Shown here: in pieces, positions 11,537 through 26,775 of the stretch | Layout: each line of letters begins with the position of its first letter | Numbering within the stretch: position 1 is the stretch's first letter | Source of the DNA: a virus | Direction: 5' to 3' (one strand) | Virus record (IMG/VR): IMGVR_UViG_3300042557_000971 | Coordinates: 1-26,775 of that record | Length of the DNA: 26,775 nt | The notes under the pieces: generated by a model | Database searches by the model: none | The model's input: the letters and a program-made list of their open reading frames with translations, nothing else | Told to the model about the DNA's origin: nothing | Position numbers and translations under genes: made by a program

Positions 11537-11551
11537 AAGTGTATCTTCCTG

Positions 11552-11561
11552 TTATTTATAA
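11552..11561 (+). promoter_or_regulatory. TATTTATA leader motif before the SOD fusion
   Basis: TTATTTATAA on the plus strand, an inverted repeat (TTAT/ATAA) around TT, 16 bases before the ATG at 11578. Its presence in the leader argues for the ATG over a GTG at 11539 in the same frame. Confidence 0.4.
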
Positions 11562-11577
11562 GGAAATATACCTTAAT

Positions 11578-13107: not shown

Positions 13108-13111
13108 TAAA

Positions 13112-13121
13112 CTATTTATAG
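13112..13121 (+). promoter_or_regulatory. TATTTATA leader motif before the gp13-like gene
   Basis: CTATTTATAG on the plus strand ends two bases before the ATG at 13124. This closeness makes a conventional -10 element for this gene unlikely unless the mRNA is nearly leaderless, and argues for a translation or processing signal. Confidence 0.4.
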
Positions 13122-13123
13122 GT

Positions 13124-14242: not shown

Positions 14243-14244
14243 TT

Positions 14245-14580
14245 ATGGCGGTTATTAAAAGTATTCCATCCCAAAGAATTATTAACGGACAAGTTCAAGA
14301 AACTTCCGAAATATCAATCGTATCTGAAGCTTACTATGACACTGCAGGAGAATCTTGTGTTGTTGTAAAAAGTGTGGATAATTCTAAATTAAGATTAAAT
14401 AGTACAACTACTGACCACGTAGTCGTTAAAGCATTAACTAAAGTTTTAGTTATACCTGATATTGGTAGAGTTGATGAAGCTTATGATGAGATTATGTTAG
14501 ATTGGGGCGCTTGTGTTGAGTTTAGATTCTGTGCAGGTAATTGGTATATCTTATCATCAGATGGATTAAAACAATCTTAA
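14245..14580 (+). CDS. Small beta-rich probable virion protein
   Basis: A 111-residue protein not assigned to a named family. It is almost all short strands: ISIVSEAYYDTAGESCVVV, KLRLNSTTTDHVVVKALTKV, then IMLDWGACVEFRFCAGNWYI and LSSDGLKQS at the end. The ending (E.....GNWYILSSDG) is the kind seen on beta-sandwich phage surface proteins and fibre heads. It starts two bases after the stop of the gp13-like gene, so the two are coupled and probably both structural. A small decoration, head or neck fibre component is a reasonable guess. Confidence 0.6.
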   Translation: MAVIKSIPSQRIINGQVQETSEISIVSEAYYDTAGESCVVVKSVDNSKLRLNSTTTDHVVVKALTKVLVIPDIGRVDEAYDEIMLDWGACVEFRFCAGNWYILSSDGLKQS

Positions 14581-14616
14581 TATTCAATTTTTTTAGATTA
14601 ATCATATTTTTTTTCT

Positions 14617-15294
14617 ATGAGAATAGAAAATATTAATGAAGTCCCAATTTTAATCCATACAATGGATGCCTACTCTACATATTGGGACACTTGGTACCAT
14701 TTATTTAAAAAATACACTACAAATCACGGACCAATTTACTTCTTAACTGAAGAAAAAGAACCTTCATTTGTTAATGAAGTTAACCACATTAAATCAGGTA
14801 AAGGTGAGTGGGGATATAGACTCAAAAAAGGTTTTGAACAAGTTCCTTCTGATATTCTATTTTATATGCAAGAAGACAATTGGGCGTATGCACCATTTGA
14901 ATTTAAACAAGAATATTTGGACAAGTTTTATGAACTTGATATACACTCATTGAGATTTCATAAATGTGCTTGGGGTGAAATCAATTATGTTTCAGTTGAA
15001 GATAATCTATTTAGGTATACTCAAAATTCACGGTATTTAATGGGACATCAAATGGGTCTTTGGGATAAAAATTTCTTTAAATCAAACGTGTTAGATACTG
15101 ACAATCCTTGGAGTAGTGAGTTGGAAGGAACACCAAGATGGTATGATACTGACCATAGAATTTATCAATACGACATCGCTTGGTATTGGTCTACTTGTAG
15201 AAGAGGTGAATTACAGAATATTGGTAGAGAGATATTAAGTAATAATGGTATCACAGAATTTGATGATACCCCCATTCCACGTCAATCAAACTAA
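14617..15294 (+). CDS. Glycosyltransferase-like protein (GT-A type)
   Basis: A 225-residue protein. It starts with a strand VPILIHTMDAYSTYWDTWY, then GPIYFLTEEKEPSFVNEV, and a core segment SDILFYMQEDNWAYAPFEF in which QEDN replaces the metal-binding DxD of GT-A enzymes. RLKKGFEQVPSDILFYMQED is the usual helix-strand-acidic arrangement. The remainder holds many Trp and Tyr (GHQMGLWDKNFF, DIAWYWSTCRRGEL). It probably transfers a sugar from a nucleotide sugar, as the four glycosyltransferase genes at 18775-23306 do. It ends the plus-strand operon and shares four bases at the stop with the convergent HsdS-like gene. Substrate is unknown, and its place after structural genes hints at a virion glycoprotein. 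Confidence 0.6.
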   Translation: MRIENINEVPILIHTMDAYSTYWDTWYHLFKKYTTNHGPIYFLTEEKEPSFVNEVNHIKSGKGEWGYRLKKGFEQVPSDILFYMQEDNWAYAPFEFKQEYLDKFYELDIHSLRFHKCAWGEINYVSVEDNLFRYTQNSRYLMGHQMGLWDKNFFKSNVLDTDNPWSSELEGTPRWYDTDHRIYQYDIAWYWSTCRRGELQNIGREILSNNGITEFDDTPIPRQSN

Positions 15295-15572
15295 TTTATA
15301 GAAATATTACCTAAATCACTAATCGTAATATTTTTTAATCTAGTTGTACCGTGAGATAACGACGCAATCTTACCTTGACTTACAAGGTATTGAAATACGT
15401 AGTAAAGATAATCAGGTATAACCAAATCAGGACGAGTTACCGTAACTCCAATATGTTCAGGAGAAAACTCACGAGTAGGTGTTCCAACAGTTGTTTCATC
15501 TCCTTTACGAATTAACCAAAAATCGGCTTCGGGATTGTTAACACTAAAGTCAACGATGTGTTTCAGTTTCAT
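15291..15572 (-). CDS. Mini HsdS-like protein (type I specificity-subunit fragment fold)
   Basis: A 93-residue protein that resembles half of a type I restriction specificity (HsdS) target-recognition domain: FWLIRKGDETTVGTPTREFS, then a THIGVTV-type strand (HIGVTVTRPDLVIP), DYLYYVFQYLVSQGKIASLS and HGTTRLKNITISDLGNISI. The last part corresponds to the recurring HsdS end, a Gly-Thr-Thr/Gln turn followed by I...DL..I.I. HsdS proteins are normally about 400 residues with two such domains, so this is a single short unit. No HsdM or HsdR is visible in the window. It is directly upstream of nothing else on its strand and follows the DNA polymerase by four bases, suggesting co-expression. It could interfere with host type I systems or bind DNA for another purpose. 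Confidence 0.55.
   Translation of the reverse strand: MKLKHIVDFSVNNPEADFWLIRKGDETTVGTPTREFSPEHIGVTVTRPDLVIPDYLYYVFQYLVSQGKIASLSHGTTRLKNITISDLGNISIN
15302..15333 (+). terminator. Possible AT-rich terminator for the plus-strand operon
   Basis: A 9-bp perfect stem (AAATATTAC with GTAATATTT) with a 14-base loop, followed by TTT on the plus strand so that the run of T reaches seven or more. It lies eight bases past the stop of the glycosyltransferase-like gene, inside the 3' end of the convergent HsdS-like gene. The stem is AT-rich, so strength is uncertain. Confidence 0.4.
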
Positions 15573-15576
15573 AATA

Positions 15577-18279
15577 TTAAATATGTTGTTCCCAACCTTC
15601 TTCGGCTAATTCATACATATAATCAGGTTCAAGACCTCGTTTCTTCCAATAAGAAACTTCACCGTCAGACATTGTCATAACTTCTTCAAGTTCATCTTGG
15701 TCTCCATTACCCAAAGGTAAACCATTGATAAGTTCACATTGAGCTGTGGTAAATAAACCTCTTTTTGATGGGTCAGCAACAATTAGACTCTTTCTTACTT
15801 CTTCTTTGAATACAACCATAAGCGGTTCAATACGTTTGTTGAACGTTGTAATTGCTCTCGCAACATTGTATTCGCCAGTCATCTCAGGGTTGTTCTCAAG
15901 GTCTTCAGGGTTCAACATATAACAATTTAACGTCACAGTATCACCTTTCTTAACAACATCTCCGTGAGAAGCTCTTTGTCCGTTATTAACATACATAATC
16001 ATATCCCCCAAGTTAACATTCAATCCGTGATGAATTGCAAGTTCCATATGTGCTTGTCTTGACATCAGAGACCCCGCTTTTGTCTTCTGTGTGCAACGAA
16101 ACTTGTAGTCCTGTAGTGTTTGTTTAACTTTAGCTTTTTGAGCGATTTTGGCCAAAGGAATTTGTTGGTCCCAAATCTTTTGTAGATACTCGTAATAATA
16201 CTCCACAAATGATTTACCATCACCCTTTAATAAAAGTTTAATACCCTTATCCAAAAACTCTTCGATGTAACCAGGTAGTTTCTTTGATTTGATTGTGTTA
16301 CCAACCAATTTGATTTTACCTGAATCGGTAAGTAGAGCATAGTTCTTACGAGCAAGGTTTATACACGATGGCCAAACACCATCGGTATCCAGTGCCATTT
16401 CACCTCTCATAAAAATATCGTTGTATTCTGCAACGTCAGCATCAGGTCCCGTATACTCTTTACCCTCTTTTACTTTCCAATTTAATCCTCGACCAATGTA
16501 TCTGTGACTATCAACATCTTCAGGTGACGAGAAGTTCACACCGTCCGTATCCATTACAAGTGGAATGTAACCACGAGACATAAAGAATTTAATCATTTGA
16601 CGAAGATATTGTCTACCCGTACAAGTAATCTGTTCTCCCATATACATATCCCCCCAAGCAAATACCTGTGGAGCTGAAAGCGCACCGAACATCGAGTTGA
16701 TGAAGATTTTAATCGGTAACTGTTTGTTGTTGTATGATGCTGATTTTTTGGGGTCAGATTCATAATACTCCTCAGCAAGTTGTTTGTACAAGATACGAGT
16801 ATCACGGAAGTATTTTAACATACCTTTCATCGCACCTGTTACGTCACATTGGGGGAACACATCGTGAACCAACTGAATTGATGGATAAAGTGACGAGAAG
16901 TCGAGCTTTAATACGCTTTTAGAATACCCTACTTTAAGTAGACGAGACAATCCACCTACGAAGTCTGTCTTGGATTGTTTTGCTGGTATTGCCAAATTAT
17001 GTTTGTAAGACCACGCTAACATCAACATCTTCCATAGTGTTGCCGTACCCATTGTAGATACTCGCTCATATGTTGTTGGAATCATTGATGCAAGTAGAAA
17101 CGATGCTTGGTTGAATTCTTTATCAACTTTTAAGGTTTCTTCCAAGTCATCTTGGAGATATCGTTCAACCAATTCGGCACCATCAGTTAATAGATAAGTG
17201 TCAGGAAACTTTTTATCCAAATCAACATAGTCACCCTTTTTACGATACTCACCATTTTTGATGTTTAACCAATACTCTTTCTTTTCCTGATACATCTTAC
17301 CAATAGAGTCGTGACCAATATAAACTCGGTCTGGTTCTTTTGCGTTTACATATTCTGCAATATACTTCAAACCCGCAGATTTGATTGATGAGTTAATTGC
17401 TTGAGCTCTACGGACCGCGTGAATAATATCAATTACATTGTAACCCCAAATAGAAGTCTGCATAAAATCCTCAACTTCGTTTGCGAGTTTCAACAAGTTT
17501 TTCTTTTGTGATATGGAATGTTCGGGATGTAATGAGTGACATATTTTTTTGATGTCAATTCCCAACGCCTTACATCTTTCAAAAATCCAATACCAGTCAA
17601 AGTTTGCTGAGTTGTAACCACCGATAATACTTGGTTTGAGTTCATTAATTACTTTGAAGAACTCGATAATACCGCTCTTCTCTTGTGTCTCATCAATACA
17701 TTCGATAATTCTATTATAACCTTTGTTTGTTCTAATACCAATCATAAAGATACGACCGTCTCTTGGTTCGAGTGAGGTCGTCTCTAAGTCGAATACCAAT
17801 CGAGACACGTCATCATAGTCTTCATACCCCTTAAATAATCGTTTTTGTTTTGAAACGAAATATTGTTCTACAGGTGGTAGAATCAAAATCTTATCTTTAA
17901 ATTTTTCACCCCAAGGGTCTGCTCCACCATCACGGAAGAACTGAATCAAACTTCTATACCCCTTCAAAGATTTAACCATATAGGTCAAACCTTTTTCCAT
18001 TCGTTCATCACCGTGAGTATCTAATTTGTCAATAACAATCCCGTGTTTTGACATTGCTTCTTTTTGAGCTCCTTTGGAGTTTCCGTAGAAATTTAATCCA
18101 CGTAAATCACCAACCCAACAAAATGGAATGAATGTATCTTTTCGGATTTCTTTACCCTTACCAGGAATTTCTTTGATTTTATAAATGGAGTCTGAGGCGT
18201 AATCAAATTCTACCGCCACGATAAATTCTTCAGGGTCGTTCCCTTCCAAGAATTCTTTGATTTCTTGTTGTTCAATCAT
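15577..18279 (-). CDS. Family B DNA polymerase (T4 gp43-like)
   Basis: At 900 residues it is essentially the length of T4 gp43 (898). Proofreading exonuclease motifs: Exo I VFDLETTS (about 162-169, Asp164 and Glu166), Exo II GGYNSANFDWYW (Asp228), Exo III YLQDDLEETLKV (about 374-385). Polymerase motifs: A KLDFSSLYPSIQL (Asp460), B LPIKIFINSMFGALSAP (about 521-537), C VMDTDGVNFS (Asp577, Asp579). All catalytic acids are present. Motif C is unusual in having DTDG where DTDS is the norm. It replicates the phage genome, probably with a phage clamp. The gene has its own sigma70-like promoter and a leader hairpin, and is followed after four bases by the HsdS-like gene. Confidence 0.95.
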   Translation of the reverse strand: MIEQQEIKEFLEGNDPEEFIVAVEFDYASDSIYKIKEIPGKGKEIRKDTFIPFCWVGDLRGLNFYGNSKGAQKEAMSKHGIVIDKLDTHGDERMEKGLTYMVKSLKGYRSLIQFFRDGGADPWGEKFKDKILILPPVEQYFVSKQKRLFKGYEDYDDVSRLVFDLETTSLEPRDGRIFMIGIRTNKGYNRIIECIDETQEKSGIIEFFKVINELKPSIIGGYNSANFDWYWIFERCKALGIDIKKICHSLHPEHSISQKKNLLKLANEVEDFMQTSIWGYNVIDIIHAVRRAQAINSSIKSAGLKYIAEYVNAKEPDRVYIGHDSIGKMYQEKKEYWLNIKNGEYRKKGDYVDLDKKFPDTYLLTDGAELVERYLQDDLEETLKVDKEFNQASFLLASMIPTTYERVSTMGTATLWKMLMLAWSYKHNLAIPAKQSKTDFVGGLSRLLKVGYSKSVLKLDFSSLYPSIQLVHDVFPQCDVTGAMKGMLKYFRDTRILYKQLAEEYYESDPKKSASYNNKQLPIKIFINSMFGALSAPQVFAWGDMYMGEQITCTGRQYLRQMIKFFMSRGYIPLVMDTDGVNFSSPEDVDSHRYIGRGLNWKVKEGKEYTGPDADVAEYNDIFMRGEMALDTDGVWPSCINLARKNYALLTDSGKIKLVGNTIKSKKLPGYIEEFLDKGIKLLLKGDGKSFVEYYYEYLQKIWDQQIPLAKIAQKAKVKQTLQDYKFRCTQKTKAGSLMSRQAHMELAIHHGLNVNLGDMIMYVNNGQRASHGDVVKKGDTVTLNCYMLNPEDLENNPEMTGEYNVARAITTFNKRIEPLMVVFKEEVRKSLIVADPSKRGLFTTAQCELINGLPLGNGDQDELEEVMTMSDGEVSYWKKRGLEPDYMYELAEEGWEQHI

Positions 18280-18310
18280 AATTTAAGTTTTACCGAGTGA
18301 CTTATTTTCT

Positions 18311-18325
18311 TCCACACCGTGTGGA
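18311..18325 (-). promoter_or_regulatory. Hairpin in the DNA polymerase leader
   Basis: TCCACA-CGG-TGTGGA on the minus strand forms a 6-bp stem with a 3-base loop, 31 bases before the polymerase ATG and downstream of its likely promoter. It lacks a U-tract, so it is not a terminator. T4 gp43 represses its own translation by binding a leader hairpin, so this could be an analogous operator, by analogy only. Confidence 0.35.
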
Positions 18326-18344
18326 GTTTGTCTTACTCATTCAA

Positions 18345-18378
18345 CTATAAATATAGATTGTAAAAGTGAATCTGTCAA
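18345..18378 (-). promoter_or_regulatory. sigma70-like promoter for the DNA polymerase
   Basis: On the minus strand TTGACA (18378-18373), exactly 17 bases, then TATATT (18355-18350): a near-consensus housekeeping promoter. The -10 overlaps an inverted repeat CTATA-TT-TATAG (18356-18345), the TATTTATA motif seen at other leaders. It starts directly after the stop of the upstream BppU-like gene and would give a leader of about 64 bases containing the hairpin at 18311-18325. Confidence 0.65.
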
Positions 18379-18756
18379 TTAGCAACAAGCAGTTTTTGCA
18401 ATAAAGCTGTCTTCAACATTAATATACAACTCTTCTCTAATAGGAACAATTAAATCACCCTCAAAGTTCTTGATTAAGAATTGTCCTTTGTATCTACCAG
18501 GAGTATTTGTGTCCCTTGCAGTAAATTGATAGTAGATATAATATTCTGTTGGAGCTCCGTCAGCCAAAATTAAACTAACAATAGAACAGGGCGCTGAAAC
18601 AATCTTGGGAATACCCGTTGCCTCATTAATCATTGAGAAGTATATTGCTGAAACCTCTAAAAGGTCCATCAACTCCAAATAACCTGACCTACCGTCTTGA
18701 ACGACCTGCATTTTTAATACAGGTAAAGTAGCATTTTTTCTGATAAAGAATTCCAT
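18379..18756 (-). CDS. BppU-like baseplate/fibre structural protein
   Basis: A 125-residue protein with strands LPVLKMQVVQDGRSGYLELM, EVSAIYFSMINEATGIPKI, then EYYIYYQFTARDTNTPGRYK and IVPIREELYINVEDSFIAKT. The plan, a start binding a DGR turn, then FSMINE, an ending strand of the form GRYKGQF and PI.E.L.I.V, resembles the N-terminal domain of BppU-type baseplate proteins, which attach receptor-binding parts to the tail. The end TACC is Cys-rich. It follows the glycosyltransferase genes and lies just ahead of the polymerase promoter. A link to the upstream Thr/Pro-rich surface proteins is likely but not shown. Confidence 0.5.
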   Translation of the reverse strand: MEFFIRKNATLPVLKMQVVQDGRSGYLELMDLLEVSAIYFSMINEATGIPKIVSAPCSIVSLILADGAPTEYYIYYQFTARDTNTPGRYKGQFLIKNFEGDLIVPIREELYINVEDSFIAKTACC

Positions 18757-18775
18757 ACAAAGATAAATACTTTGT
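18757..18775 (-). promoter_or_regulatory. Hairpin with TATTTAT loop before the BppU-like gene
   Basis: The minus strand reads ACAAAG-TATTTAT-CTTTGT and then ATG: a perfect 6-bp stem with the 7-base motif as its loop, filling the gap between two genes. The start codon follows the stem immediately, so folding would affect initiation. Confidence 0.4.
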
Positions 18776-20454
18776 TAAGACTCTTTTCTCAAGCTTCTGT
18801 CATAATGTTCAAATCTATCGTGCTCAGTTGGGGTTGCAAATAACAATGCCGACTTGATATTACCCTTTTTAGTTTCTTGGAAAATGTAACTCATCCAAGT
18901 TTGTTCAAAAGGACGGTCCCACTTTGTTGTTAAGAACATTTTCTCGTTTCCATATCTTGTAACAACTTGTGGCCAGTTACAATAATAAACTTCACCAATA
19001 CCATAAGGTAATCCTTGATATGAATATACTGCGTCAAATTTAGTTCTTGGCGCATTAGGGTCTAATCCTTGAACAGGTAGGTTTGGTTTTTCAGGCCAAA
19101 ACTTTTCTCTAACTGTTTGAGGAACATTATACCAAGACCATTGAACTCCATTGTCCCCAAAAAACTCAGAATAATTTAGTTTCAAAAAGTCTAATGAGTT
19201 TTCTCGGGTAATCTTCATAGACTTATTGTATAGGTCCTGAATATTTCTAATGAACCCATTTCTACAAACAGTATCTTTACCATCATAGAAGAACATATCG
19301 TCTTCAAAGAACCAATAAAAATCAAAACCATTTTCTTGTGCGTGTTCAGCGATAAATTGTCTACCACCACAGATACCTAAGTTATCTTTTTTAATGTGTT
19401 CAAACTCGTATAACTTACAAAGTTCCGAGTATTCCTCGGTAGTTGACAAGTCACTTGAATTATCTAAAAGATATTTCTTTTTAGGTTTTGTTAAGAAATT
19501 TTCATCATATAACTCCATAGACTTAATCAATGTTTTAAATTGATTAGGACTATTGAATGTAATTACATAGAGTGAGGTGTTATCATAATCTAAATCACTA
19601 TAAGACTGTTTACCTGAAATATTTTTAACTTTATAGGTATCATTTTTAACATCTTCACAAAACTTAGAGATAAGTCCGTTACCATCAATTTCGTGGTAAT
19701 CAAACATATCGTTGTGTCTGTATAACATAATACTGAATAAAGATTCTTCAGTGCCCATTAAACCTCTACCTAAAGTCTCACTTAAAACACTATAATAAAG
19801 ACTATTAACGTCTGTTATCATACTTTTTAATCCACCAAACAAACCTCCTCTACAAACAAGTTTTACATCTTGTCCTGCGTAATCATTAATCGTTGGGTAT
19901 TTGAATCCGTGAATTTCATTTTCAGCGTCATATGGGAACGCCACAAACCCAAATCTTGGAAATACCTTATCGAATTTTTCTTGAATTTTATCGTGTGTAA
20001 AATATCCAGGATGAACCGTATTTGTAATACCTGCATCAATCCAAAACAAATGTGTGGAGTCAAATTTGTCAAATATTTTTGCATCGTGCAATACAAACAT
20101 TTTTGACATAACAAGAGGGTTATACATATCAAGTTTTGCTTGAGTTGATTCTGGCAGCCATCCCGATTGACTATACCATTCAGGGTTTGTTCTTATAGAC
20201 TGAATGATTTCATAAAAATCATTTTTAAACCATTCTTGAGGTCTTACAATAAATTGGGTATTTTCATTATTTCTATTTGGTTGTGAAAATACGAATTCTT
20301 CAAGTTCTTTATCACCAAAAATAATAAAGTTAGTGTCTTGTCTTAAAAGTTCCGAGAACTTTTGTAGATAATGGTCAAACGACCTTGACCATCCTTCAGT
20401 CAAAGAGTCACGTTTAATATTCCAAAGTCCGGTTACAAATGTAATTTTACTCAT
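18775..20454 (-). CDS. Two-domain glycosyltransferase: HtrL/YibB-like plus GT-A domain
   Basis: A 559-residue protein of two halves. Residues 1-285 are of the HtrL/YibB type: KITFVTGLWNIKRDSL at the start, THLFWIDAGITNTV (138-142 WIDAG), and CRGGLFGGLKSM with a later GTEESLFSIML. Residues 293-559 are a separate GT-A-like domain: SLYVITFNSPNQFKTLIKSM, KKYLLDNSSD, LGICGGRQFIAEHA and FYWFFEDDMFFYDG (EDDM, about 384-387, the acidic metal-binding motif). The fusion suggests two sequential sugar-transfer steps. Its ATG overlaps the stop of the upstream HtrL-like gene by eight bases, so they are co-translated. The acceptor is unknown; the nearby Thr/Pro-rich proteins are candidates. Confidence 0.75.
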   Translation of the reverse strand: MSKITFVTGLWNIKRDSLTEGWSRSFDHYLQKFSELLRQDTNFIIFGDKELEEFVFSQPNRNNENTQFIVRPQEWFKNDFYEIIQSIRTNPEWYSQSGWLPESTQAKLDMYNPLVMSKMFVLHDAKIFDKFDSTHLFWIDAGITNTVHPGYFTHDKIQEKFDKVFPRFGFVAFPYDAENEIHGFKYPTINDYAGQDVKLVCRGGLFGGLKSMITDVNSLYYSVLSETLGRGLMGTEESLFSIMLYRHNDMFDYHEIDGNGLISKFCEDVKNDTYKVKNISGKQSYSDLDYDNTSLYVITFNSPNQFKTLIKSMELYDENFLTKPKKKYLLDNSSDLSTTEEYSELCKLYEFEHIKKDNLGICGGRQFIAEHAQENGFDFYWFFEDDMFFYDGKDTVCRNGFIRNIQDLYNKSMKITRENSLDFLKLNYSEFFGDNGVQWSWYNVPQTVREKFWPEKPNLPVQGLDPNAPRTKFDAVYSYQGLPYGIGEVYYCNWPQVVTRYGNEKMFLTTKWDRPFEQTWMSYIFQETKKGNIKSALLFATPTEHDRFEHYDRSLRKES

Positions 20455-21328
20455 CGATTTTATTTAATTCTTCTAAAATTTTATAGAAACTTTTGTTTTC
20501 AACAAAGTAACTGTCAGGGGTTTCTCTTGGAGCGTTATCTCTACACCACCAAGTATCAAAATGTTTTCTAACAAAATATTCTGAATGGTTGTAAAACATT
20601 AGTGTCATAAACAATTCTTCAGGAAAAGGTCTTTTATCCTCTTCAATAATCTTGTCAGCGTAATTCTCAAACATAGGTACTAATGTCTCCCATAATTCTC
20701 GTTTACCACCGAACATACCACCAATAATATGAATTGTTCTATCATAATTGGTATACCATTTTGGGTCAACTGTTTGAGACCAAAAATTTCTATCATTATC
20801 TTTACCAATCAAAAAGAATTTATCTCCTGAAAATTCTACAACATTTTTTAAAAAATCATTATTAAATAACGATGACTCATAAAACTTTCTTGGACCGTTT
20901 TCTACCGTAAGGTATTTGTTCGGTATTAATCCGCTATGTGATAAACCAGCATCAATCCAATAATAATAATCGTATGTTTTATCTTCGTTCCACCACCAAC
21001 TAAACTTTTGATATTGTATTTCAAAACATCTATCACTTTTTTTAGCGTCTTCATAGTTTTTATACTTTTGAAGTAGTGTTTCATATCTTGTGGTTCTTAA
21101 GTTAGACAACTCAAATTTTAATTTATCTTCAGATATACCATTTTCAACATAAAAGAAATTTTTTAATCTATCAATTTCTCTTGTTGAGGTATAACACACA
21201 AAATCAGCATCGGTCATTTTTAATAGTGAGAGAAGTGAATTTAAGTAATGACCAAATCTTGATGGTCTACCGCCTAACTCAGTCCCATATAGGTCACCGT
21301 AAATACAGGTTATAAATTTAACTGACAT
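20447..21328 (-). CDS. HtrL/YibB-like glycosyltransferase-type protein
   Basis: A 293-residue protein related to the N-terminal half of the next gene: KFITCIYGDLYGTELGGRPS at the start, YDYYYWIDAGLSHSGLIPNK (the WIDAG motif), and IHIIGGMFGGKRELWETL (the GG.FGG motif), then FPEELFMTLMFYNHSEYFV. The family was first named from E. coli yibB, next to LPS core genes, and behaves as glycosyltransferase-like in fold. The pair in tandem looks like a duplication in which one copy later gained a C-terminal GT-A domain. It overlaps the upstream GT25 gene by 11 bases and the downstream one by eight, so the cluster is translated as a unit. Confidence 0.7.
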   Translation of the reverse strand: MSVKFITCIYGDLYGTELGGRPSRFGHYLNSLLSLLKMTDADFVCYTSTREIDRLKNFFYVENGISEDKLKFELSNLRTTRYETLLQKYKNYEDAKKSDRCFEIQYQKFSWWWNEDKTYDYYYWIDAGLSHSGLIPNKYLTVENGPRKFYESSLFNNDFLKNVVEFSGDKFFLIGKDNDRNFWSQTVDPKWYTNYDRTIHIIGGMFGGKRELWETLVPMFENYADKIIEEDKRPFPEELFMTLMFYNHSEYFVRKHFDTWWCRDNAPRETPDSYFVENKSFYKILEELNKIDE

Positions 21329-22055
21329 AATAATATTCTTTATGAATGTTTTCTTTTTTCATTGTTTTATTGTTTACGTTATTCATAAACTCATTAGGTA
21401 TTTTTACCTCACTATAAAGGTTCCAATTGTATGTTTGACCGTAAAAATTATTACACATTTGTTGTGAAACGTCTGACCAGTCATTAGTAATTTGTGGTGC
21501 TATGGGTAGAATTGGGCAATAACTTTGTTTTTTTAAATATACTTTTTGATATATGTAATCATCCACTGCGTAAAATCTTCTACGTTCATCTTCTTCTATG
21601 GAAATAACATCATCATATGATGATTCGTGATACAATATCATATTTGTTGCAAAAATACCTCTGTGTTCAGGAGACGCTGGTGGTAGATTAGTAATATCAT
21701 TTAATAGTGGGTGTTTTTCGCTCCTATTAACATATCTATTTAAAGTTGGTGCCAAGTTAAAAACTGCGTATTCAAGACCTTGACACTCATCTTCGATTGC
21801 TTTTAATAAAGATTTTGCATACGGCATAACAACACAATCATCTTCAATAATAAGAACTTCTTTATATCCTCTTTCTTTCGCAATTTTTAAAATAGCCGTG
21901 TGGGAAAGTGTACAACCCACGTGGCTATTAGTATCAACCGCCTTGAATAACTCAAAATCCCATTCAAGATATTCCATTTCTTTTTTAATGGATTCTAATC
22001 TATCAGGTCTTCTTTCAAGATTTACTACAAATTTTGGTATTGTATTGAACTTCAT
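21318..22055 (-). CDS. GT25-family glycosyltransferase
   Basis: A 245-residue protein with the glycosyltransferase family 25 pattern: PKFVVNLERRPDRLESIKKE at the start, FELFKAVDT, GCTLSHTAILKIAKERG (GC.LSH, about 47-52) and EVLIIEDDCVVMPYAKSL (EDD, 71-73). The last is the metal-binding acidic motif. GT25 includes LPS galactosyltransferases and, in eukaryotes and giant viruses, collagen galactosyltransferases that act on hydroxylysine. RRRFYAVDDYIYQKVYLK in the second half fits the later conserved D.F. It starts three bases after the upstream GlcNAc-transferase-like gene stops and overlaps the next by 11 bases. Confidence 0.85.
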   Translation of the reverse strand: MKFNTIPKFVVNLERRPDRLESIKKEMEYLEWDFELFKAVDTNSHVGCTLSHTAILKIAKERGYKEVLIIEDDCVVMPYAKSLLKAIEDECQGLEYAVFNLAPTLNRYVNRSEKHPLLNDITNLPPASPEHRGIFATNMILYHESSYDDVISIEEDERRRFYAVDDYIYQKVYLKKQSYCPILPIAPQITNDWSDVSQQMCNNFYGQTYNWNLYSEVKIPNEFMNNVNNKTMKKENIHKEYYYVS

Positions 22056-22058
22056 TTT

Positions 22059-23306
22059 TTAAAGATTTCCTGTTAATCTATCACACCAACCCTTAGATTC
22101 TGAGTGAGGCCATACAACCCAATATTTAGGTTTTTCTGCTGTTTGGAATTCTCTCCATACTTTACAATATCCATCAGGGTCTCTTAACATTGAAGTAATT
22201 TCATTTTTATCAGCGTCTTTTCTAAAGATTGTTTCATCATTTTCATTGTGGAACGCAACCACCCAAAAATCATAATCTTTTTCAGGTACTGAAGAATAAC
22301 CAATATCAATACAGTGTTTGAATACTTGTGCGAAATCGGCTTTCCAATCATCTTCAGACTCATAATTGTATGGATTTGGCGGATATTTTTTATCAATTGT
22401 GTATTGCTGAACAGCTCTTTTTTCAAATAAAAGACCCGCATATTTTTCATAATCTCTTAAACTTCTAACGGTACCAAAGCCATAAGGACCATCGTGACCT
22501 TCTTGAGTTTCACCGTCCATACCAAACAACTTTCTATTTGTTAAGTGTGAGTGATTATTTTTATTAACCCATTCTTTGTCATCATCCCATTGTTTTGTTC
22601 TTCCTTTACGAGTATACTCGTGCCAAATTAATGTTTTATGTGGGTGAAACAAATCATAACCCCAAGTATATGCTCTTGCGGCGATTGAAATTTCTTCTCC
22701 GTGGAAGTAATATTCGGGATTGTGTTGTACCTCGTTTGAGAATTCACCTAATGTAAAACAATAGTGTGCAGAATAGAATCTTGCGGGGATTGGTTCTTTT
22801 AAATCTTGCCAACCAGGAATTGTTTCAGGTAAGAAAAATACCGCACCTTCAGGAATAAATCTATCAAAAACCATTCTCCAAGGGTCTTGAACTCTACCTG
22901 CAGGGTCGTTTTCAGGGTCAAATGATGAAACATATCCTGTTAATAAAGGTTTTTTATGACCTTTCTTTTGAAGTTGTTTAATCATCTTAATCATCTCGTC
23001 ATCCCAATTAGGTGCGAACCTCATATGTGAGTCAATTTGTAGGGTATATTCTTCACCCTCATAAAGTTGTTGTGTTAAGTTTCTAGCCCAACAAACGCCT
23101 TTAGATTCTTCGTGTGGAATATCTAAAACTCTGAATCTTTTATCCCCTTCAAATTCTTCTAAACTGTCAAATTTATCATCGGGGTGAAATTGTCTTGCAA
23201 TACCAAATCTAATATTTTTTGGTTTTTTAGCATTTTCCAACATATTCTTAATTGTTGGAACGAGTTGTGGGTCTCTATAGGACGCAATTTGAACAAAAAT
23301 TTTCAT
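22059..23306 (-). CDS. Skp1-GlcNAc-transferase-like glycosyltransferase
   Basis: A 415-residue protein matching the GlcNAc-transferase family known from Dictyostelium Skp1: FVQIASYRDPQLVPTIKNML at the start, ARQFHPDD, PHEESKGVCWARN, EEYTLQIDSHMRFAPNWDDE (QIDSH, 90-94, the DxD-type metal site), YYFHGEEISIAARAYTWGYD and HPHKTLIWHEY. In Dictyostelium the enzyme links GlcNAc to a hydroxyproline of a cytoplasmic protein. The residues after about 315 (NYESEDDWKADFAQVFKHCI onwards) look like an extra C-terminal domain. It is first in the glycosyltransferase run, directly behind the terminator that follows the Thr/Pro-rich protein genes. Acceptor specificity in this phage is unknown. Confidence 0.85.
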   Translation of the reverse strand: MKIFVQIASYRDPQLVPTIKNMLENAKKPKNIRFGIARQFHPDDKFDSLEEFEGDKRFRVLDIPHEESKGVCWARNLTQQLYEGEEYTLQIDSHMRFAPNWDDEMIKMIKQLQKKGHKKPLLTGYVSSFDPENDPAGRVQDPWRMVFDRFIPEGAVFFLPETIPGWQDLKEPIPARFYSAHYCFTLGEFSNEVQHNPEYYFHGEEISIAARAYTWGYDLFHPHKTLIWHEYTRKGRTKQWDDDKEWVNKNNHSHLTNRKLFGMDGETQEGHDGPYGFGTVRSLRDYEKYAGLLFEKRAVQQYTIDKKYPPNPYNYESEDDWKADFAQVFKHCIDIGYSSVPEKDYDFWVVAFHNENDETIFRKDADKNEITSMLRDPDGYCKVWREFQTAEKPKYWVVWPHSESKGWCDRLTGNL

Positions 23307-23330
23307 TACACTTTTTTTTAAAAAATAAAA

Positions 23331-23354
23331 AACCCTCCAATAAAGTGGAGGGTT
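23331..23354 (-). terminator. Intrinsic terminator after the Thr/Pro-rich protein genes
   Basis: A 9-bp perfect stem (AACCCTCCA with TGGAGGGTT) and 6-base loop, followed on the minus strand by TTTTATTTTTT. It lies between the repeat-protein gene (stop 23384) and the first glycosyltransferase gene (start 23306), separating a highly expressed structural unit from enzyme genes. Confidence 0.85.
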
Positions 23355-23383
23355 TATATGAAAGTTGTTTTAAATAATTTGAA

Positions 23384-24703
23384 TTAACATCCGTTAGGGT
23401 CTGTCTGAACAATAACTCCTGAAGAATCTGTTCTGTACCAAGCGGTACCGTTAGACCAATATGCAACTCCTACAGGGTTTGATAATGGGTCAATTGTTTG
23501 ATATAATGTCTCACCTAAGTTTGGTCCTACACCACCTGATACCGAACCATAAACTGTAATAGGACTAGCCGCACAAGCTAAGTTAGCGGTTGAGCCTGAT
23601 GATAACGAATAAACATAATTATTTCTTGTTGGTGTTGGTGTTGGTGTACTTGTTCCTGTGTTAGTTGGTGTTTGAGTATTAGTTGGAGTATTAGTTGCGG
23701 TATTAGTTGGTGTTTGAGTATTAGTTGGTGTTGGTGTGTTAGTTGCTGTTTGTGTTGGTGTTGGTGTTAATGTTGGACATATTGAGAATCCATTTAATTC
23801 ATAACCTGCAGAATCTAACTCAACAACTTGACCCGAATTCTGATAGAAACCTGACATATCAGTTGTTACAGGTCCTGAAGGAGAATCATAGAAGAAAATA
23901 TTTTGGTCAAAGAATTGATTTATACCATATATCTCAATAGACGTACCGTAATTACCACAAGCATCAAGGGCATTATTTGCGAAATTCACGGCAAATTGGA
24001 ATCTAGCAGGTTCAGTTGTTGATGGTGTTGGAGTTGGTGTTTGAGTATTAGTTGCGGTGTTTGTTGGTGTTTGAGTAATAGTTGGTGTTGGTGTGTTAGA
24101 TGATGTGTTGGTTGGAGTATTAGTCGGGGTTTGAGTTTGGGTACTAGTCGGAGTGTTAGTTGGTGTTTGTGTATTTGTAGGTGTTTGCGTTGGTGTACCT
24201 GTTTGAGTATTTGTTGGTGTTTGTGTTTGAGTTGATGTATTTGTTATAGTATTAGTCGGTGTCTGAGTTGGTGTATTTGTTGCGGTATTAGTTGGTGTTT
24301 GTGTTTGGGTATTACTTGGTGTGTTAGTTACAGTATTTGTTGGTGTATTAGTTACAGTATTTGTTGGTGTTGGTGTAGGCGTTTTGGTTTGAGTATTAGT
24401 TGGGGTTTGAGTATTAGTTGCGGTGATAGACGGTGTTGGAGTTGGGGTTCTTGTATTAGTTGGTGTTGGAGTATTAGTCGCAGTTTGAGATGGTGTTGGT
24501 GAAATAGGAGGGAATGTCTCCTCAACAATAGTAAATTGTGCTGATAAAGCAGCTTGAAACGTACCATTAACCAACCAAATATTTCGTACTTGACCAGGTG
24601 TTAATAAGATATCGTATTCCCACATATTGTTGGAACACTCTTGATAAGAGAAAGTTAATCCCTGAGCTGTGTTATTAGTTAGTATGTATTTTTTACAAGC
24701 CAT
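23384..24703 (-). CDS. Thr/Pro/Asn-repeat surface protein with three folded domains
   Basis: A 439-residue protein. Residues 1-72 form an N-terminal domain (CKKYILTNNTAQGLTFSYQE, NMWEYDILLTPGQVRNIWLV) nearly identical to that of the next gene upstream. Then come a long linker of TPTNTPTNT/TQTPTNT repeats (to about 232), a domain with ALDACGNYGTSIEIYGINQF and DSPSGPVTTDMSGFYQNSGQ (to about 312) shared with the gene at 25322, a second PT linker, and a C-terminal domain (ACAASPITVYGSVSGG, ending TDSSGVIVQTDPNGC). The architecture, folded modules strung on disordered Thr/Pro linkers, is that of phage fibre or adhesin proteins. No signal peptide or membrane segment is evident. It is the last of three such genes and ends before a strong terminator. 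Thr-rich linkers are natural O-glycosylation targets for the enzymes encoded next. Confidence 0.8.
   Translation of the reverse strand: MACKKYILTNNTAQGLTFSYQECSNNMWEYDILLTPGQVRNIWLVNGTFQAALSAQFTIVEETFPPISPTPSQTATNTPTPTNTRTPTPTPSITATNTQTPTNTQTKTPTPTPTNTVTNTPTNTVTNTPSNTQTQTPTNTATNTPTQTPTNTITNTSTQTQTPTNTQTGTPTQTPTNTQTPTNTPTSTQTQTPTNTPTNTSSNTPTPTITQTPTNTATNTQTPTPTPSTTEPARFQFAVNFANNALDACGNYGTSIEIYGINQFFDQNIFFYDSPSGPVTTDMSGFYQNSGQVVELDSAGYELNGFSICPTLTPTPTQTATNTPTPTNTQTPTNTATNTPTNTQTPTNTGTSTPTPTPTRNNYVYSLSSGSTANLACAASPITVYGSVSGGVGPNLGETLYQTIDPLSNPVGVAYWSNGTAWYRTDSSGVIVQTDPNGC
23625..23775. repeat. Thr/Pro-coding short repeats, second linker
   Basis: Degenerate repeats (plus strand forms such as GTATTAGTTGGTGTTTGAGT) that encode TPTNTQTPTNT on the minus strand within the 23384-24703 gene. 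Confidence 0.75.
24013..24505. repeat. Thr/Pro-coding short repeats, first linker
   Basis: About 490 bases of degenerate repeats built from units of 12, 18 and 24 bases, encoding TNTPTNT and TQTPTNT runs on the minus strand. Unit changes are in multiples of three, so expansion or loss keeps the reading frame. Confidence 0.75.
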
Positions 24704-24742
24704 TTTAGTAGTTCTTTATTATTAAATATCATCAATATGTTA

Positions 24743-25312
24743 TTAACAACTGCCAGTGTCTATAATAACTCCTGACCCGTTAGTTTGGATATAATTATGC
24801 CCATCAGAATAGAATGATGCTTCAGTTGTTGAGGTCATTGCAAAATTTAAATAAACAATATCACCATTAATCAAATTTGAAAATAGTTTTGTCGAATATC
24901 TTGGTGCATTTCCCTGTGGATAGTTATTACAAGCATTTACCGACAAAGTATCATCAATCCCTAAATCAGAATATTCAAACACTACTTGTGTTGGGGTTGG
25001 AGTCGGGGTTGATGTACGTGTTGGTGTTACTGATTGTGTTGGAGTAGGAGTTAACGTTGGAGTAACTGATGGCGTTGGTGTATTAGTCGGAGTCTGAGAT
25101 GGTGTTGGTGAAATAGGTGGAAACACTTCTTCAGTGATTGTGAATTGTGCCTCTAAAGCCGCTTGAAAAGTTCCGTTAACTAACCAAATATTTCTAACTT
25201 GACCAGGTGTTAATAAGATATCGTATTCCCACATATTGTTGGAACATTCTTGATAAGAAAAAGTTAAACCTTGTGAGGTGTTGTTTGTTAAAGTATATTT
25301 TTTACAAGACAT
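24743..25312 (-). CDS. Short Thr/Pro-repeat surface protein
   Basis: A 189-residue paralogue of the neighbouring repeat proteins. Residues 1-72 match the start of the 23384-24703 protein almost throughout (CKKYTLTNNTSQGLTFSYQE, NMWEYDILLTPGQVRNIWLV, FPPISPTPSQT). A short linker (TPTLTPTPTQSVTPTRTSTP, about 73-108) leads to a C-terminal domain with VNACNNYPQGNAPRYSTKLF and DGHNYIQTNGSGVIIDTGSC. This last domain resembles, in order of motifs, the C-terminal domain of the longer protein: an early AC, a later strand, then a T(D/N).SGVI turn ending in C. It is probably a minor or shorter fibre built from the same attachment domain. It lies nine bases after the upstream repeat gene. Confidence 0.8.
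   Translation of the reverse strand: MSCKKYTLTNNTSQGLTFSYQECSNNMWEYDILLTPGQVRNIWLVNGTFQAALEAQFTITEEVFPPISPTPSQTPTNTPTPSVTPTLTPTPTQSVTPTRTSTPTPTPTQVVFEYSDLGIDDTLSVNACNNYPQGNAPRYSTKLFSNLINGDIVYLNFAMTSTTEASFYSDGHNYIQTNGSGVIIDTGSC
24983..25115. repeat. Thr/Pro-coding short repeats in the short paralogue
   Basis: About 130 bases of degenerate TP/TPS-coding repeats on the minus strand, shorter and less regular than those of the neighbours. Confidence 0.7.
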
Positions 25313-25321
25313 AATATTTTA

Positions 25322-26775
25322 TTAACTATTTAAACAAGTTATACAATTATTCCAAGGACCCGATATAACGTCTGCGAATGTGGTTACTGTTGCAGTTGTT
25401 GTTGATATTATCGTGTAACAAGAAACACCATCATTAATTACATCTAATTTATAGATTTTACCCGTCTGTAAAGTATCATAAATACCAAACTGACCAACAA
25501 ATCCTGAAGAACAATCTTGTACTAAATATTTTTTAGCCCCTTGAGGTGTGTCAGTAGGTGTTACTGACGGTGTATTTGTATTTGTTGGTGTTGGACTTGC
25601 GGTATTAGTTGGAGTCTGTGTTTGTGTTGGAGTCTGTGTTTGTGTTGTTGTATTAGTTGGGGTTTGTGTTGGAGTATTTGATGCCGTGTTTGTTGGTGTC
25701 TGTGTTGCGGTATTAGTTGGTGTCTGTGTTTGTGTTGCCGTGTTAGTCGGAGTTTGAGTCGGAGTTTGAGTTGAGGTATTGGTTGGTGTATTTGTTGCAG
25801 TATTTGTTGGTGTTTGAGTTGGTGTTGGCGTATTACTAGCAGTATTAGTTGGTGTCTGAGTAGGTGTGTTGGTGGCAGTGTTTGTTGGTGTTTGAGTTGC
25901 GGTATTTGTTGGAGTATTTGTTGGTGTTTGAGTAGGTGTATTTGTTGCGGTATTAGTTGGAGTGTTAGTTGCAGTATTAGTTGGTGTCTGAGTTGGTGTA
26001 TTTGTTGCAGTATTAGTTGGGGTATTTGTTGCTGTGTTTGTTGGAGTCTGAGTCTGAGTTGGAGTTTGAGTTGGTGTAGGTGTGTTGGTTGCGGTATTAG
26101 TCGGAGTTTGAGTTTGGGTAGGTGTATTTGTTGCTGTGTTAGTTGGAGTCTGAGTTTGAGTTGGAGTTTGAGTTTGGGTTGGTGTTTGGGTAGGTGTAGG
26201 TGTAAGTGTTACGCATATTGAATACCCACCTGTTTCATTACCTGATGAATCCAACTCAACAACTTGTGCAGATTGTTGGTAGTAACCTGTCATATCAACG
26301 GTTACTGGACCTGACGGAGAATTGTAGAAGAAATTGTTTTGGTCGAATATAGTTTCAATACCATATATGGTAGTTGATGTTCCATAATTACCACAAGCCT
26401 CATCATATGTACCACCTTTGATAACTGAGAACGCATATCTTGGTGGTTCACTTGGGGTTGGAGTTTGTGTTTGTGTTTGTGTCGGAGTTTGTGTTTGTGT
26501 CGGAGTTTGTGTTTGTGTCGGAGTTTGTGTTGGAGTCTCTGTATTAGTTGGTGTTTGGGTTGGTGTTGAACCTAATGTAGATGTTGGTGTCTGAGTTGGT
26601 GTAGATGTTGGTGTGTTTGTCGCAGTATTAGTTGGTGTGTTTGTTGCGGTATTAGTTGGTGTGTTTGTTGCGGTATTAGTTGGCGTATTTGTCGCAGTAT
26701 TAGTTGGTGTGTTTGTTGCGGTATTAGTTGGCGTATTTGTTGCGGTGTTAGTTGGCGTATTTGTTACCGTATTAG
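25322..26775 (-). CDS. Long Thr/Pro-repeat surface protein, 5' end outside window
   Basis: The frame is open from the right edge to the stop at 25322, about 483 residues. An internal Met at 26293 is not the start, because a folded domain that matches the paralogue continues upstream of it. Order in translation: a PT linker of 8-residue TNTPTNTA units, a TQTQTP stretch, a domain with YDEACGNYGTSTTIYGIETI and NSPSGPVTVDMTGYYQQSAQ (matching the domain at about 233-312 of the 23384 gene), then over 200 residues of TQTPTNTATNT linker, and a C-terminal domain starting GAKKYLVQDCSSGFVGQFGI and ending CITCLNS. KKYLVQDCSSG recalls the KKY.LTNNT start of the paralogues. Probably a large fibre or adhesin; no catalytic motif seen. 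Confidence 0.8.
   Translation of the reverse strand, partial: NTVTNTPTNTATNTPTNTATNTPTNTATNTPTNTATNTPTNTATNTPTNTATNTPTSTPTQTPTSTLGSTPTQTPTNTETPTQTPTQTQTPTQTQTPTQTQTQTPTPSEPPRYAFSVIKGGTYDEACGNYGTSTTIYGIETIFDQNNFFYNSPSGPVTVDMTGYYQQSAQVVELDSSGNETGGYSICVTLTPTPTQTPTQTQTPTQTQTPTNTATNTPTQTQTPTNTATNTPTPTQTPTQTQTPTNTATNTPTNTATNTPTQTPTNTATNTPTNTATNTPTQTPTNTPTNTATQTPTNTATNTPTQTPTNTASNTPTPTQTPTNTATNTPTNTSTQTPTQTPTNTATQTQTPTNTATQTPTNTASNTPTQTPTNTTTQTQTPTQTQTPTNTASPTPTNTNTPSVTPTDTPQGAKKYLVQDCSSGFVGQFGIYDTLQTGKIYKLDVINDGVSCYTIISTTTATVTTFADVISGPWNNCITCLNS
25547..26210. repeat. Long Thr/Pro-coding repeat array
   Basis: About 660 bases of degenerate repeats of 6-, 12-, 18- and 24-base units encoding TQTPTNT/TNTATNT on the minus strand. 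Plus-strand open frames here (Val/Gly/Cys-rich) are by-products of the repeat. Confidence 0.8.
26460..26519. repeat. 18-bp tandem repeat coding for TQTQTP
   Basis: GGAGTTTGTGTTTGTGTC repeats three times, the first copy with an extra six bases (26460-26483, 26484-26501, 26502-26519). Copies 2 and 3 are identical, so expansion is recent. Confidence 0.8.
26608..26775. repeat. Seven 24-bp tandem repeats coding for TNTATNTP
   Basis: Units of the type TTGGTGTGTTTGTTGCGGTATTAG follow each other exactly every 24 bases from 26608 to the window end, with variants at a few positions (TCGCAG, GGCGTA). Each unit is eight codons on the minus strand. The array probably continues beyond the window. Confidence 0.85.

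What the first reader, a model, noticed from the sequence alone, without database searches (positions are those of the whole stretch)
18775..26775. Thr/Pro mucin-like surface proteins beside four glycosyltransferase-type genes: a possible phage glycoprotein module
Three repeat proteins with long TNTPTNT/TQTPTNT linkers are followed, on the same strand, by a Skp1-GlcNAc-transferase-like, a GT25-like and two HtrL/YibB-like enzymes. Known relatives attach GlcNAc to hydroxyproline and galactose to hydroxylysine. The linkers lack N-x-S/T sequons in their core repeat, so O-linkage to Thr or modified Pro fits best. Together this could be a dedicated system that builds glycosylated fibres for adhesion, immune evasion or receptor mimicry.
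Basis: partly seen in the sequence, partly recalled or inferred. Interest (0 to 1): 0.78.

Follow-up and report, generated by a model that had tools for sequence, protein, structure and literature searches.

The report
Phage-encoded mucin-type protein glycosylation island
Some large tailed phages appear to carry their own kit for coating threonine-rich, mucin-like proteins with sugars, with a fixed first enzyme, a fixed last enzyme and a swappable set of sugar-adding genes in between.

Summary
Three Thr/Pro repeat proteins (Thr at every second residue) are followed on the minus strand by four glycosyltransferase-type genes: GT60/PF11397, GT25, a YibB-like protein, and a two-domain YibB+TAGT-like protein. 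In 38 of 39 testable non-redundant relatives a TP-rich protein lies beside the island. GT60 and the two-domain gene bracket a co-directional cassette that varies (26 gene contents in 42 complete cassettes; GT25, GT10/GT11, methyl-, sulfo- and carbamoyltransferases). TPTxTP arrays occur in 14 of 14 long GT60-bearing phage records and 0 of 13 hand-picked GT60-negative phages. Characterised GT60 enzymes start mucin-type O-glycans. XacN1, an isolate with the same GT60 and two-domain protein, has at least two published glycoproteins. Best reading: cytoplasmic mucin-type O-glycosylation of TP-rich particle proteins on Thr, with a variable outer glycan. Hydroxyproline, DNA or host-envelope targets are less likely, not excluded. 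No glycan has been placed on a TP repeat, and 34 of 50 TP-rich viral contigs show no GT60, so the link is strong in one direction only.

The parts
25322..26773 (-). TP-rich repeat protein, N-terminus missing (record end); two long Thr-x-Thr-x linkers around a small domain, plus a C-terminal domain
24743..25312 (-). TP-rich repeat protein (189 aa): N-terminal domain shared with the next gene, TP linker, C-terminal domain
23384..24703 (-). TP-rich repeat protein (439 aa): shared N-terminal domain, linker, middle domain, linker, C-terminal domain
   Evidence: none of the 130 TP-rich ORFs of loci L001-L080 has a membrane-like stretch in its first 60 residues
22059..23306 (-). GT60/PF11397 polypeptide GlcNAc-transferase-like enzyme, proposed initiating enzyme; D92-S93-H94 and G203-E204-E205 invariant in 32 of 32 aligned sequences
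21318..22055 (-). GT25 (PF01755) glycosyltransferase, variable cassette gene, proposed elongation
20447..21328 (-). Weakly YibB-like protein, variable cassette gene
18775..20454 (-). Two-domain protein: HtrL_YibB domain plus TAGT-like domain, both predicted GT-A folds; conserved far bracket of the cassette
18379..18756 (-). p125: small protein found within the next two ORFs after the two-domain gene in 61 of 70 loci with any ORF there; some homologues carry their own TP-rich extension (L075, L105, L116)

Best explanation
The island is a phage-encoded, mucin-type protein O-glycosylation system. The GT60 enzyme transfers a HexNAc (most likely alpha-GlcNAc) from a host UDP-sugar onto threonines of the alternating Thr-x-Thr-Pro linkers of TP-rich particle proteins, in the host cytoplasm, before or during assembly. 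Genes of a swappable cassette (here GT25 and a YibB-like protein; elsewhere fucosyl-, methyl-, sulfo- or carbamoyltransferase families) extend and cap the sugar. The two-domain YibB/TAGT-like protein adds conserved sugars. The result would be stiff, hydrated, glycan-coated fibres whose outer sugars can change by gene exchange. Shown: family membership, gene order, variability, co-occurrence, purifying selection; published: glycoproteins in XacN1. Inferred: acceptor residue, sugar, order of action, particle location in these phages, and function.
For: GT60: PF11397 1.5e-66; D-S-H and G-E-E invariant in 32 of 32 (that these match the GT27/GT60 metal and catalytic motifs is recalled); 26 of the 50 rows of the second-look structure list are polypeptide GalNAc-transferases (Z 11.1-12.3, 207-242 residues aligned). 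Characterised GT60 enzymes initiate mucin-type O-glycans in Dictyostelium and T. cruzi (passages and one section read). Linkage: a TP-rich ORF lies within three ORFs upstream of GT60 or the first two after the two-domain gene in 38 of 39 non-redundant loci with at least 1.5 kb upstream; the miss, L052, ends in a short TP tail. Background TP-rich ORFs: 7 of 327, 6 of 376, 16 of 502. TPTxTP DNA pattern: 14 of 14 GT60-bearing records (11-96 matches), 0 of 13 GT60-negative phages, pattern read backwards 0-2. The full-length two-domain protein and GT60 occur in the same 3 of 50,697 phage records (five more records match the YibB half only). A 230-kb Saprospiraceae MAG contig (L083) carries GT60 and the two-domain gene beside a Ser/Thr/Pro-repeat protein with a type IX secretion tail and beside a sulfotransferase. 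Cassette: 339 of 339 ORFs co-directional, 26 gene contents in 42 complete cassettes, glycan-tailoring families. dN/dS 0.04-0.12 for GT60 and the two-domain gene in the 6 of 10 comparisons where it could be calculated (dS is near saturation, so rough). [quoted passage not shown] the figure was not seen); it has TP-rich ORFs beside its tail-sheath genes.
Against: No glycan has been mapped to a TP repeat; the XacN1 glycoproteins are not named in the text read. TP-rich proteins are wider spread than GT60: 34 of 50 viral contigs picked for a TPTNTPTNT pattern show no PF11397, and 21 of those 34 show no PF00535 GT either, though they may be fragments (one shows a weak match to the end of the two-domain gene at its contig edge). 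Only 1 of 3 Bacteroidota loci has a Ser/Thr/Pro-rich ORF in the DNA held, and in one of the other two the contig starts inside GT60. The 14-versus-13 comparison is not independent (several GT60-bearing records are near-duplicates) and the controls were chosen by hand. The GT60 model is of modest quality (pLDDT 68); plain Foldseek ranks TarS, RmlT and chondroitin polymerase above the first GalNAc-T, at TM about 0.3. The TAGT family is named for a link to DNA-base oxidation (description).
Confidence: 0.74

Rival explanations
1. The enzymes modify host envelope glycans (LPS or capsule) for receptor masking or superinfection exclusion, as a jumbo-phage review proposed for cyanophage GT clusters; the TP-rich proteins are unrelated neighbours.
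For: GT25 is described as an LPS biosynthesis family (a YibB link to LPS loci is recalled); the review reads cyanophage GT clusters as outer-polysaccharide modification (passages).
Against: Characterised GT60 enzymes act on polypeptides; undecaprenyl-phosphate sugar transferase PF02397 in 0 of 17 long records (control rang in 9 of 14; other initiating, flippase and polymerase families were not searched); only 2 of 120 cassette representatives have a membrane-like stretch; TP-rich proteins track GT60.
Confidence: 0.1
2. The enzymes glycosylate hypermodified phage DNA.
For: Weak TAGT similarity and a weak match to a beta-glucosyl-HMC-alpha-glucosyltransferase PHROG (1.4e-5); a paper on aquatic jumbo phages names DNA glucosylation among possible roles for its four core GT groups.
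Against: No Tet_JBP match in 17 records (but its control genomes did not ring, so weak); PF00303 in 4 of 17, which could be ordinary thymidylate synthase or a hydroxymethylase; XacN1 DNA was analysed by digestion with BssHII, NaeI and SpeI (passage; gel not seen); sulfo-, carbamoyl- and methyltransferase families in a cassette beside TP-rich proteins fit protein glycans better.
Confidence: 0.06
3. Skp1-like hydroxyproline glycosylation: a prolyl hydroxylase modifies the linker prolines and GT60 adds GlcNAc to hydroxyproline.
For: The Dictyostelium Skp1 enzyme is a relative of the mucin-type starter; G001 carries two PF13640 frames in a second region of sugar-type genes next to a collagen-like ORF.
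Against: PF13640 in 1 of 17 long records and in neither isolate genome XacN1 nor RAS14; the constant feature of the linkers is Thr at every second residue, with Pro 16.5-25% of residues in the window. Other hydroxylase families were not searched.
Confidence: 0.05
4. The TP linkers are unmodified flexible spacers and the GTs modify other virion proteins (capsid, tail tube), as in mycobacteriophages.
For: TP-rich proteins occur in viral contigs without a detected GT60; mycobacteriophage capsid and tail-tube glycans are cited in a paper read in passages (the original was not held).
Against: Local and genome-level linkage of TP arrays with GT60 and the bacterial counterpart beside a secreted Ser/Thr/Pro protein.
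Confidence: 0.05

Closest known systems
Mucin-type O-glycosylation initiated by GT60 polypeptide alpha-GlcNAc-transferases (Dictyostelium Gnt2, Trypanosoma cruzi TcOGNT2)
   Same: Same enzyme family (PF11397), Thr-rich mucin-like candidate acceptors, further sugars added by other GTs (fucosyltransferase families GT10/GT11 occur in some cassettes).
   Different: Encoded by phages, no Golgi, proposed to be cytoplasmic; a linked, swappable cassette; acceptor and sugar unproven.
Skp1 hydroxyproline glycosylation pathway (Dictyostelium)
   Same: Cytoplasmic location and a related initiating enzyme.
   Different: Needs a prolyl hydroxylase; a PF13640 domain was found in only 1 of 17 long records here.
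Mycobacteriophage virion glycosylation (Freeman 2023, cited in PMC12619734; original not read)
   Same: Phage-encoded decoration of virion proteins.
   Different: Capsid and tail-tube C-termini there; here long Thr-Pro arrays and a GT60 starter.
XacN1 glycoproteins (PMC5852040; passages and one section read)
   Same: Has the GT60 (48% identical) and the two-domain protein (39%), plus TP-rich proteins; at least two glycoproteins reported.
   Different: In the passages read, ORF334 is called a glycosyltransferase and a possible source of the glycoproteins, without mucin-type chemistry or TP-rich proteins.
Moraphages (PMC12619734; passages read), aquatic jumbo phages of Bacteroidota with four core GT orthogroups
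   Same: Similar genome size (200-307 kb there; 295 and 309 kb records here), four core GT groups, Bacteroidota hosts predicted there and close Bacteroidota homologues here; possibly the same or a near lineage, not tested.
   Different: The authors offer DNA glucosylation, serotype change or virion glycosylation; the word 'mucin' does not occur in the text.

Membership tests
GT60 / PF11397 polypeptide GlcNAc transferase | Profile match above the curated cut-off | tested here: met
   225.7 bits against a cut-off of 21
GT60 / PF11397 polypeptide GlcNAc transferase | Conserved D-x-H and catalytic acidic residues (motif recalled) | tested here: met
   D92-S93-H94 and G203-E204-E205 invariant in 32 of 32 sequences
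GT60 / PF11397 polypeptide GlcNAc transferase | Catalytic fold like polypeptide GalNAc transferases | tested here: inconclusive
   Model pLDDT 68; polypeptide GalNAc-transferases fill 26 of 50 rows, Z 11.1-12.3, but tied with other GT-A enzymes; Foldseek ranks other GT-A enzymes first
GT60 / PF11397 polypeptide GlcNAc transferase | Transfers GlcNAc to polypeptide Thr/Ser or Hyp | not testable with these tools
   Needs an enzyme assay
Mucin-type O-glycosylation system | Dense Ser/Thr/Pro-rich acceptor domains | tested here: met
   188 distinct linkers of 40 or more residues: 40% Thr, 21% Pro, Thr at lag 2 in 82%
Mucin-type O-glycosylation system | Glycans present on those domains | not testable with these tools
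   Glycoproteins reported in XacN1 without names in the text read
Skp1-type hydroxyproline glycosylation | Prolyl hydroxylase encoded with the enzymes | tested here: inconclusive
   PF13640 in 1 of 17 records; other hydroxylase families not searched
TET-associated DNA glycosyltransferase (TAGT) | TAGT profile above the curated cut-off | tested here: not met
   20.6 bits against a cut-off of 27.5
TET-associated DNA glycosyltransferase (TAGT) | TET/JBP oxygenase in the same genome | tested here: inconclusive
   0 of 17 records, but the control genomes were silent too
Moraphage lineage | Placement in its TerL/MCP/PolB trees | not tested

The most novel reading that the evidence does not exclude
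A widespread group of large phages builds true mucin-like glycoproteins: a whole set of TP-rich particle proteins O-glycosylated by a GT60 starter of the kind known from protists, with a horizontally exchanged cassette that re-types the outer glycan as O-antigen loci do for bacteria. A Saprospiraceae bacterium uses the same starter and two-domain protein beside a secreted mucin-like protein, so host and phage may share or mimic one another's surface sugars.
Probability: 0.4. Interest if true: 0.88.

Novelty: new variant of a known kind. Interest (0 to 1): 0.76.

Why it matters
Glycosylation of phage structural proteins is described as rarely identified (passage). A conserved starter plus a swappable cassette beside Thr-Pro arrays would be a mucin-type system in viruses of bacteria, could explain unassigned core glycosyltransferases of aquatic jumbo phages if they are the same genes, would bear on the history of GT60 enzymes, and can be tested on existing XacN1 proteome data.

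Tried and rejected
Prolyl hydroxylase PF13640 in the window's own record: none. Sequence search of solved structures for GT60, single sequence and profile: no match at E 1; for the two-domain protein only two weak rows, E 0.03 and 0.09. tblastn of the 189-aa repeat protein in phages: no match, low-complexity filter on. DNA-modification and polysaccharide families were searched and did not explain the island. PHROG 15511 matches to the repeat proteins lie mainly in the TP linker, so they say nothing about homology of the domains. Nine paper searches covering phage virion glycosylation, GT60, XacN1/jumbo-phage GTs and mucin-like phage proteins listed no paper that, from title, abstract start or the passages read, describes this module; the library holds only openly licensed papers, so this is not proof of novelty. 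The Gemmatimonadota locus L086 was not examined beyond an ORF list and a Ser/Thr/Pro check. The habitat of the IMG/VR records was not looked up.
Full report
What is there. The window is a complete 26,775-base IMG/VR record, a fragment of a myovirus with tail sheath, tail tube, baseplate hub, family B-type DNA polymerase and helicase genes. On the minus strand, in reading order, lie three Thr/Pro repeat proteins, a GT60/PF11397 enzyme, a GT25, a weakly YibB-like protein, a two-domain YibB+TAGT-like protein, a small protein (p125) and the DNA polymerase. The linkers have a strict signature: Thr at every second residue (lag-2 recurrence 0.95, 0.72 and 0.91 in the three proteins; lag 1 at most 0.01), mostly with Pro, Asn, Gln, Ala or Ser between, written with all four Thr codons. 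Over 188 distinct linkers from the window and loci L001-L082 the lag-2 value is 0.82, with 114 N-x-S/T sequons in 20,175 residues.

The island is conserved with a variable centre. A scan of viral contigs with GT60 confirmed 538 relatives, of which the best 80 were fetched. After collapsing at 97% GT60 identity, 47 remain. Of the 39 with at least 1.5 kb upstream, 38 have a TP-rich ORF (at least 60% T+P in a 40-residue stretch) within three ORFs upstream of GT60 or the first two after the two-domain gene; the ORF immediately upstream is TP-rich in 31 of 46. The exception, L052, has a short TP tail. In loci L039, L040, L043-L045, L047-L049 and L062 a TP-rich ORF follows the two-domain gene. Between GT60 and the two-domain gene lie 1-7 ORFs in 42 complete non-redundant cassettes with 26 distinct contents at 40% identity; 137 pairs with GT60 at least 84% identical share no interior family. 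Cassettes not closed within the fetched DNA are longer; in the 295-kb record the two genes lie about 17 kb apart. All 339 cassette ORFs of 82 loci (not collapsed) point the same way. Of 120 cassette representatives, Pfam names GT25 (12), FkbM methyltransferase (9), GT10 (8), GT11 (3), PLOD-type GT (3), carbamoyltransferase (2), sulfotransferases and others (25 of 41 families were shown, and how many representatives had no hit is not known). Two of 120 have a membrane-like stretch, and none of 130 TP-rich ORFs has one in its first 60 residues, which fits cytoplasmic modification. GT60 and the two-domain gene are under strong purifying selection (dN/dS 0.04-0.12 in 6 of 10 comparisons; 4 were saturated); cassette genes are looser (0.10-0.38 in 8 of 10).

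TP arrays are genome-wide, not only local. TP-rich ORFs number 7 of 327 and 6 of 376 in two records of 295 and 309 kb and 16 of 502 in XacN1, where one gene was cut by a piece boundary and counted twice, so 15. In XacN1, TP-rich ORF369, 370 and 372 follow the tail sheath and sheath-stabiliser genes, and ORF350 lies next to a gene annotated as a structural protein. Of five TP-rich proteins from other loci, one carries a Laminin_G_3 domain (L036) and two match a virion-structural PHROG (L036, L009). The TPTxTP DNA pattern gives 11-96 matches in 14 of 14 long GT60-bearing records and none in 13 GT60-negative phages; read backwards it gives 0-2. The 14 are 13 of the 17 long records used (four near-duplicates left out) plus CM1, and several that remain are still near-identical. 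The 13 controls were picked by hand as jumbo or T4-like phages; their lack of GT60 rests.

Isolates and bacteria. Among 50,697 phage records GT60 occurs in three (XacN1, RAS14, CM1), and the full-length two-domain protein in the same three only; five further records match its YibB half. [quoted passage not shown] passage read, figure not seen) and used BssHII, NaeI and SpeI digestion of its DNA. In bacterial genomes GT60 relatives were confirmed in four assemblies, all MAGs. In three Bacteroidota loci GT60 is followed by the two-domain gene, in one as part of a larger protein with an FkbM methyltransferase domain. One, a 230-kb Saprospiraceae contig with housekeeping-like neighbours (by eye), has beside GT60 a Ser/Thr/Pro-repeat protein with a type IX sorting tail and a signal-like N-terminus (by eye), and a sulfotransferase. 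The other two and the Gemmatimonadota locus show no Ser/Thr/Pro-rich ORF in the DNA held; one of them starts inside GT60.

Enzymes. GT60 keeps D-S-H and G-E-E in 32 of 32 sequences. Its model is modest (pLDDT 68). Plain Foldseek puts TarS, RmlT and chondroitin polymerase first and GalNAc-T2 eighth, at TM about 0.3; in the second look 26 of 50 rows are polypeptide GalNAc-transferases, tied in Z with other GT-A enzymes. The two-domain model is good (pLDDT 87): residues 1-270 resemble GT6-type enzymes and residues 287-559 resemble B4GALNT1, GnT-I, POMGnT1 and GalNAc-Ts; two-domain hits include LH3, COLGALT1 and mimivirus R699. [quoted passage not shown] cruzi, and that the Skp1 hydroxyproline enzyme is a relative.

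Results against. Of 50 viral contigs (from 80 shown of at least 119 with a TPTNTPTNT codon pattern; mostly the longer ones), 16 carry PF11397 and 34 do not. Of those 34, one has a weak match to the end of the two-domain gene at its contig edge and 13 carry a PF00535 match. G051, a 112-kb GT60-negative contig, has a TP-rich open frame of about 5,470 codons (read across two overlapping pieces) and a separate run of sugar-type genes (by eye, with three PF00535 matches). So TP-rich phage proteins exist without a detected GT60, perhaps with other starters. G001 carries two PF13640 frames in a second region of sugar-type genes next to a collagen-like ORF, so a hydroxylation route cannot be excluded there.

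Verdict. The best-supported chemistry is mucin-type O-glycosylation on Thr in the cytoplasm, with a swappable outer glycan. The decisive evidence, a glycan on a TP repeat, is missing but obtainable.

Noticed in passing
window 14617-15294 (+): A fifth possible glycosyltransferase-like ORF (225 aa, 'QEDN' motif by eye) with no Pfam or PHROG hit, labelled among the fetched loci only in near-identical relatives (L001-L005, L059).
   Followed up: partly
window 11539-13107 (+): Iron/manganese superoxide dismutase domains (residues 49-238) in a 522-aa protein with a long unassigned C-terminal part.
   Followed up: no
window 3968-7168 (-): A 1,066-aa tail sheath whose Pfam sheath domains match only residues 835-1056; the long N-terminal part is unassigned.
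   Followed up: no
record of L149 (G051), 10246-26664 (+) and 56010-68119 (-): A giant TP-rich open frame (about 5,470 codons) and a separate run of sugar-type genes in a viral contig without GT60; G023 looks like a similar phage.
   Followed up: partly
record of L036 (G001), 263854-294913: TP-rich ORFs followed by a second region of sugar-type genes with two 2OG-Fe(II) oxygenase-like frames, next to a collagen-like protein at the record end.
   Followed up: partly
L083:6349-13092: Saprospiraceae MAG contig: GT60 and the two-domain gene beside a Ser/Thr/Pro-repeat protein with a type IX secretion tail and a sulfotransferase.
   Followed up: yes
L075:13732-14310, L105, L116: Homologues of p125 (window 18379-18756) with their own Thr/Pro-rich extensions, hinting that p125 is a particle protein.
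   Followed up: no
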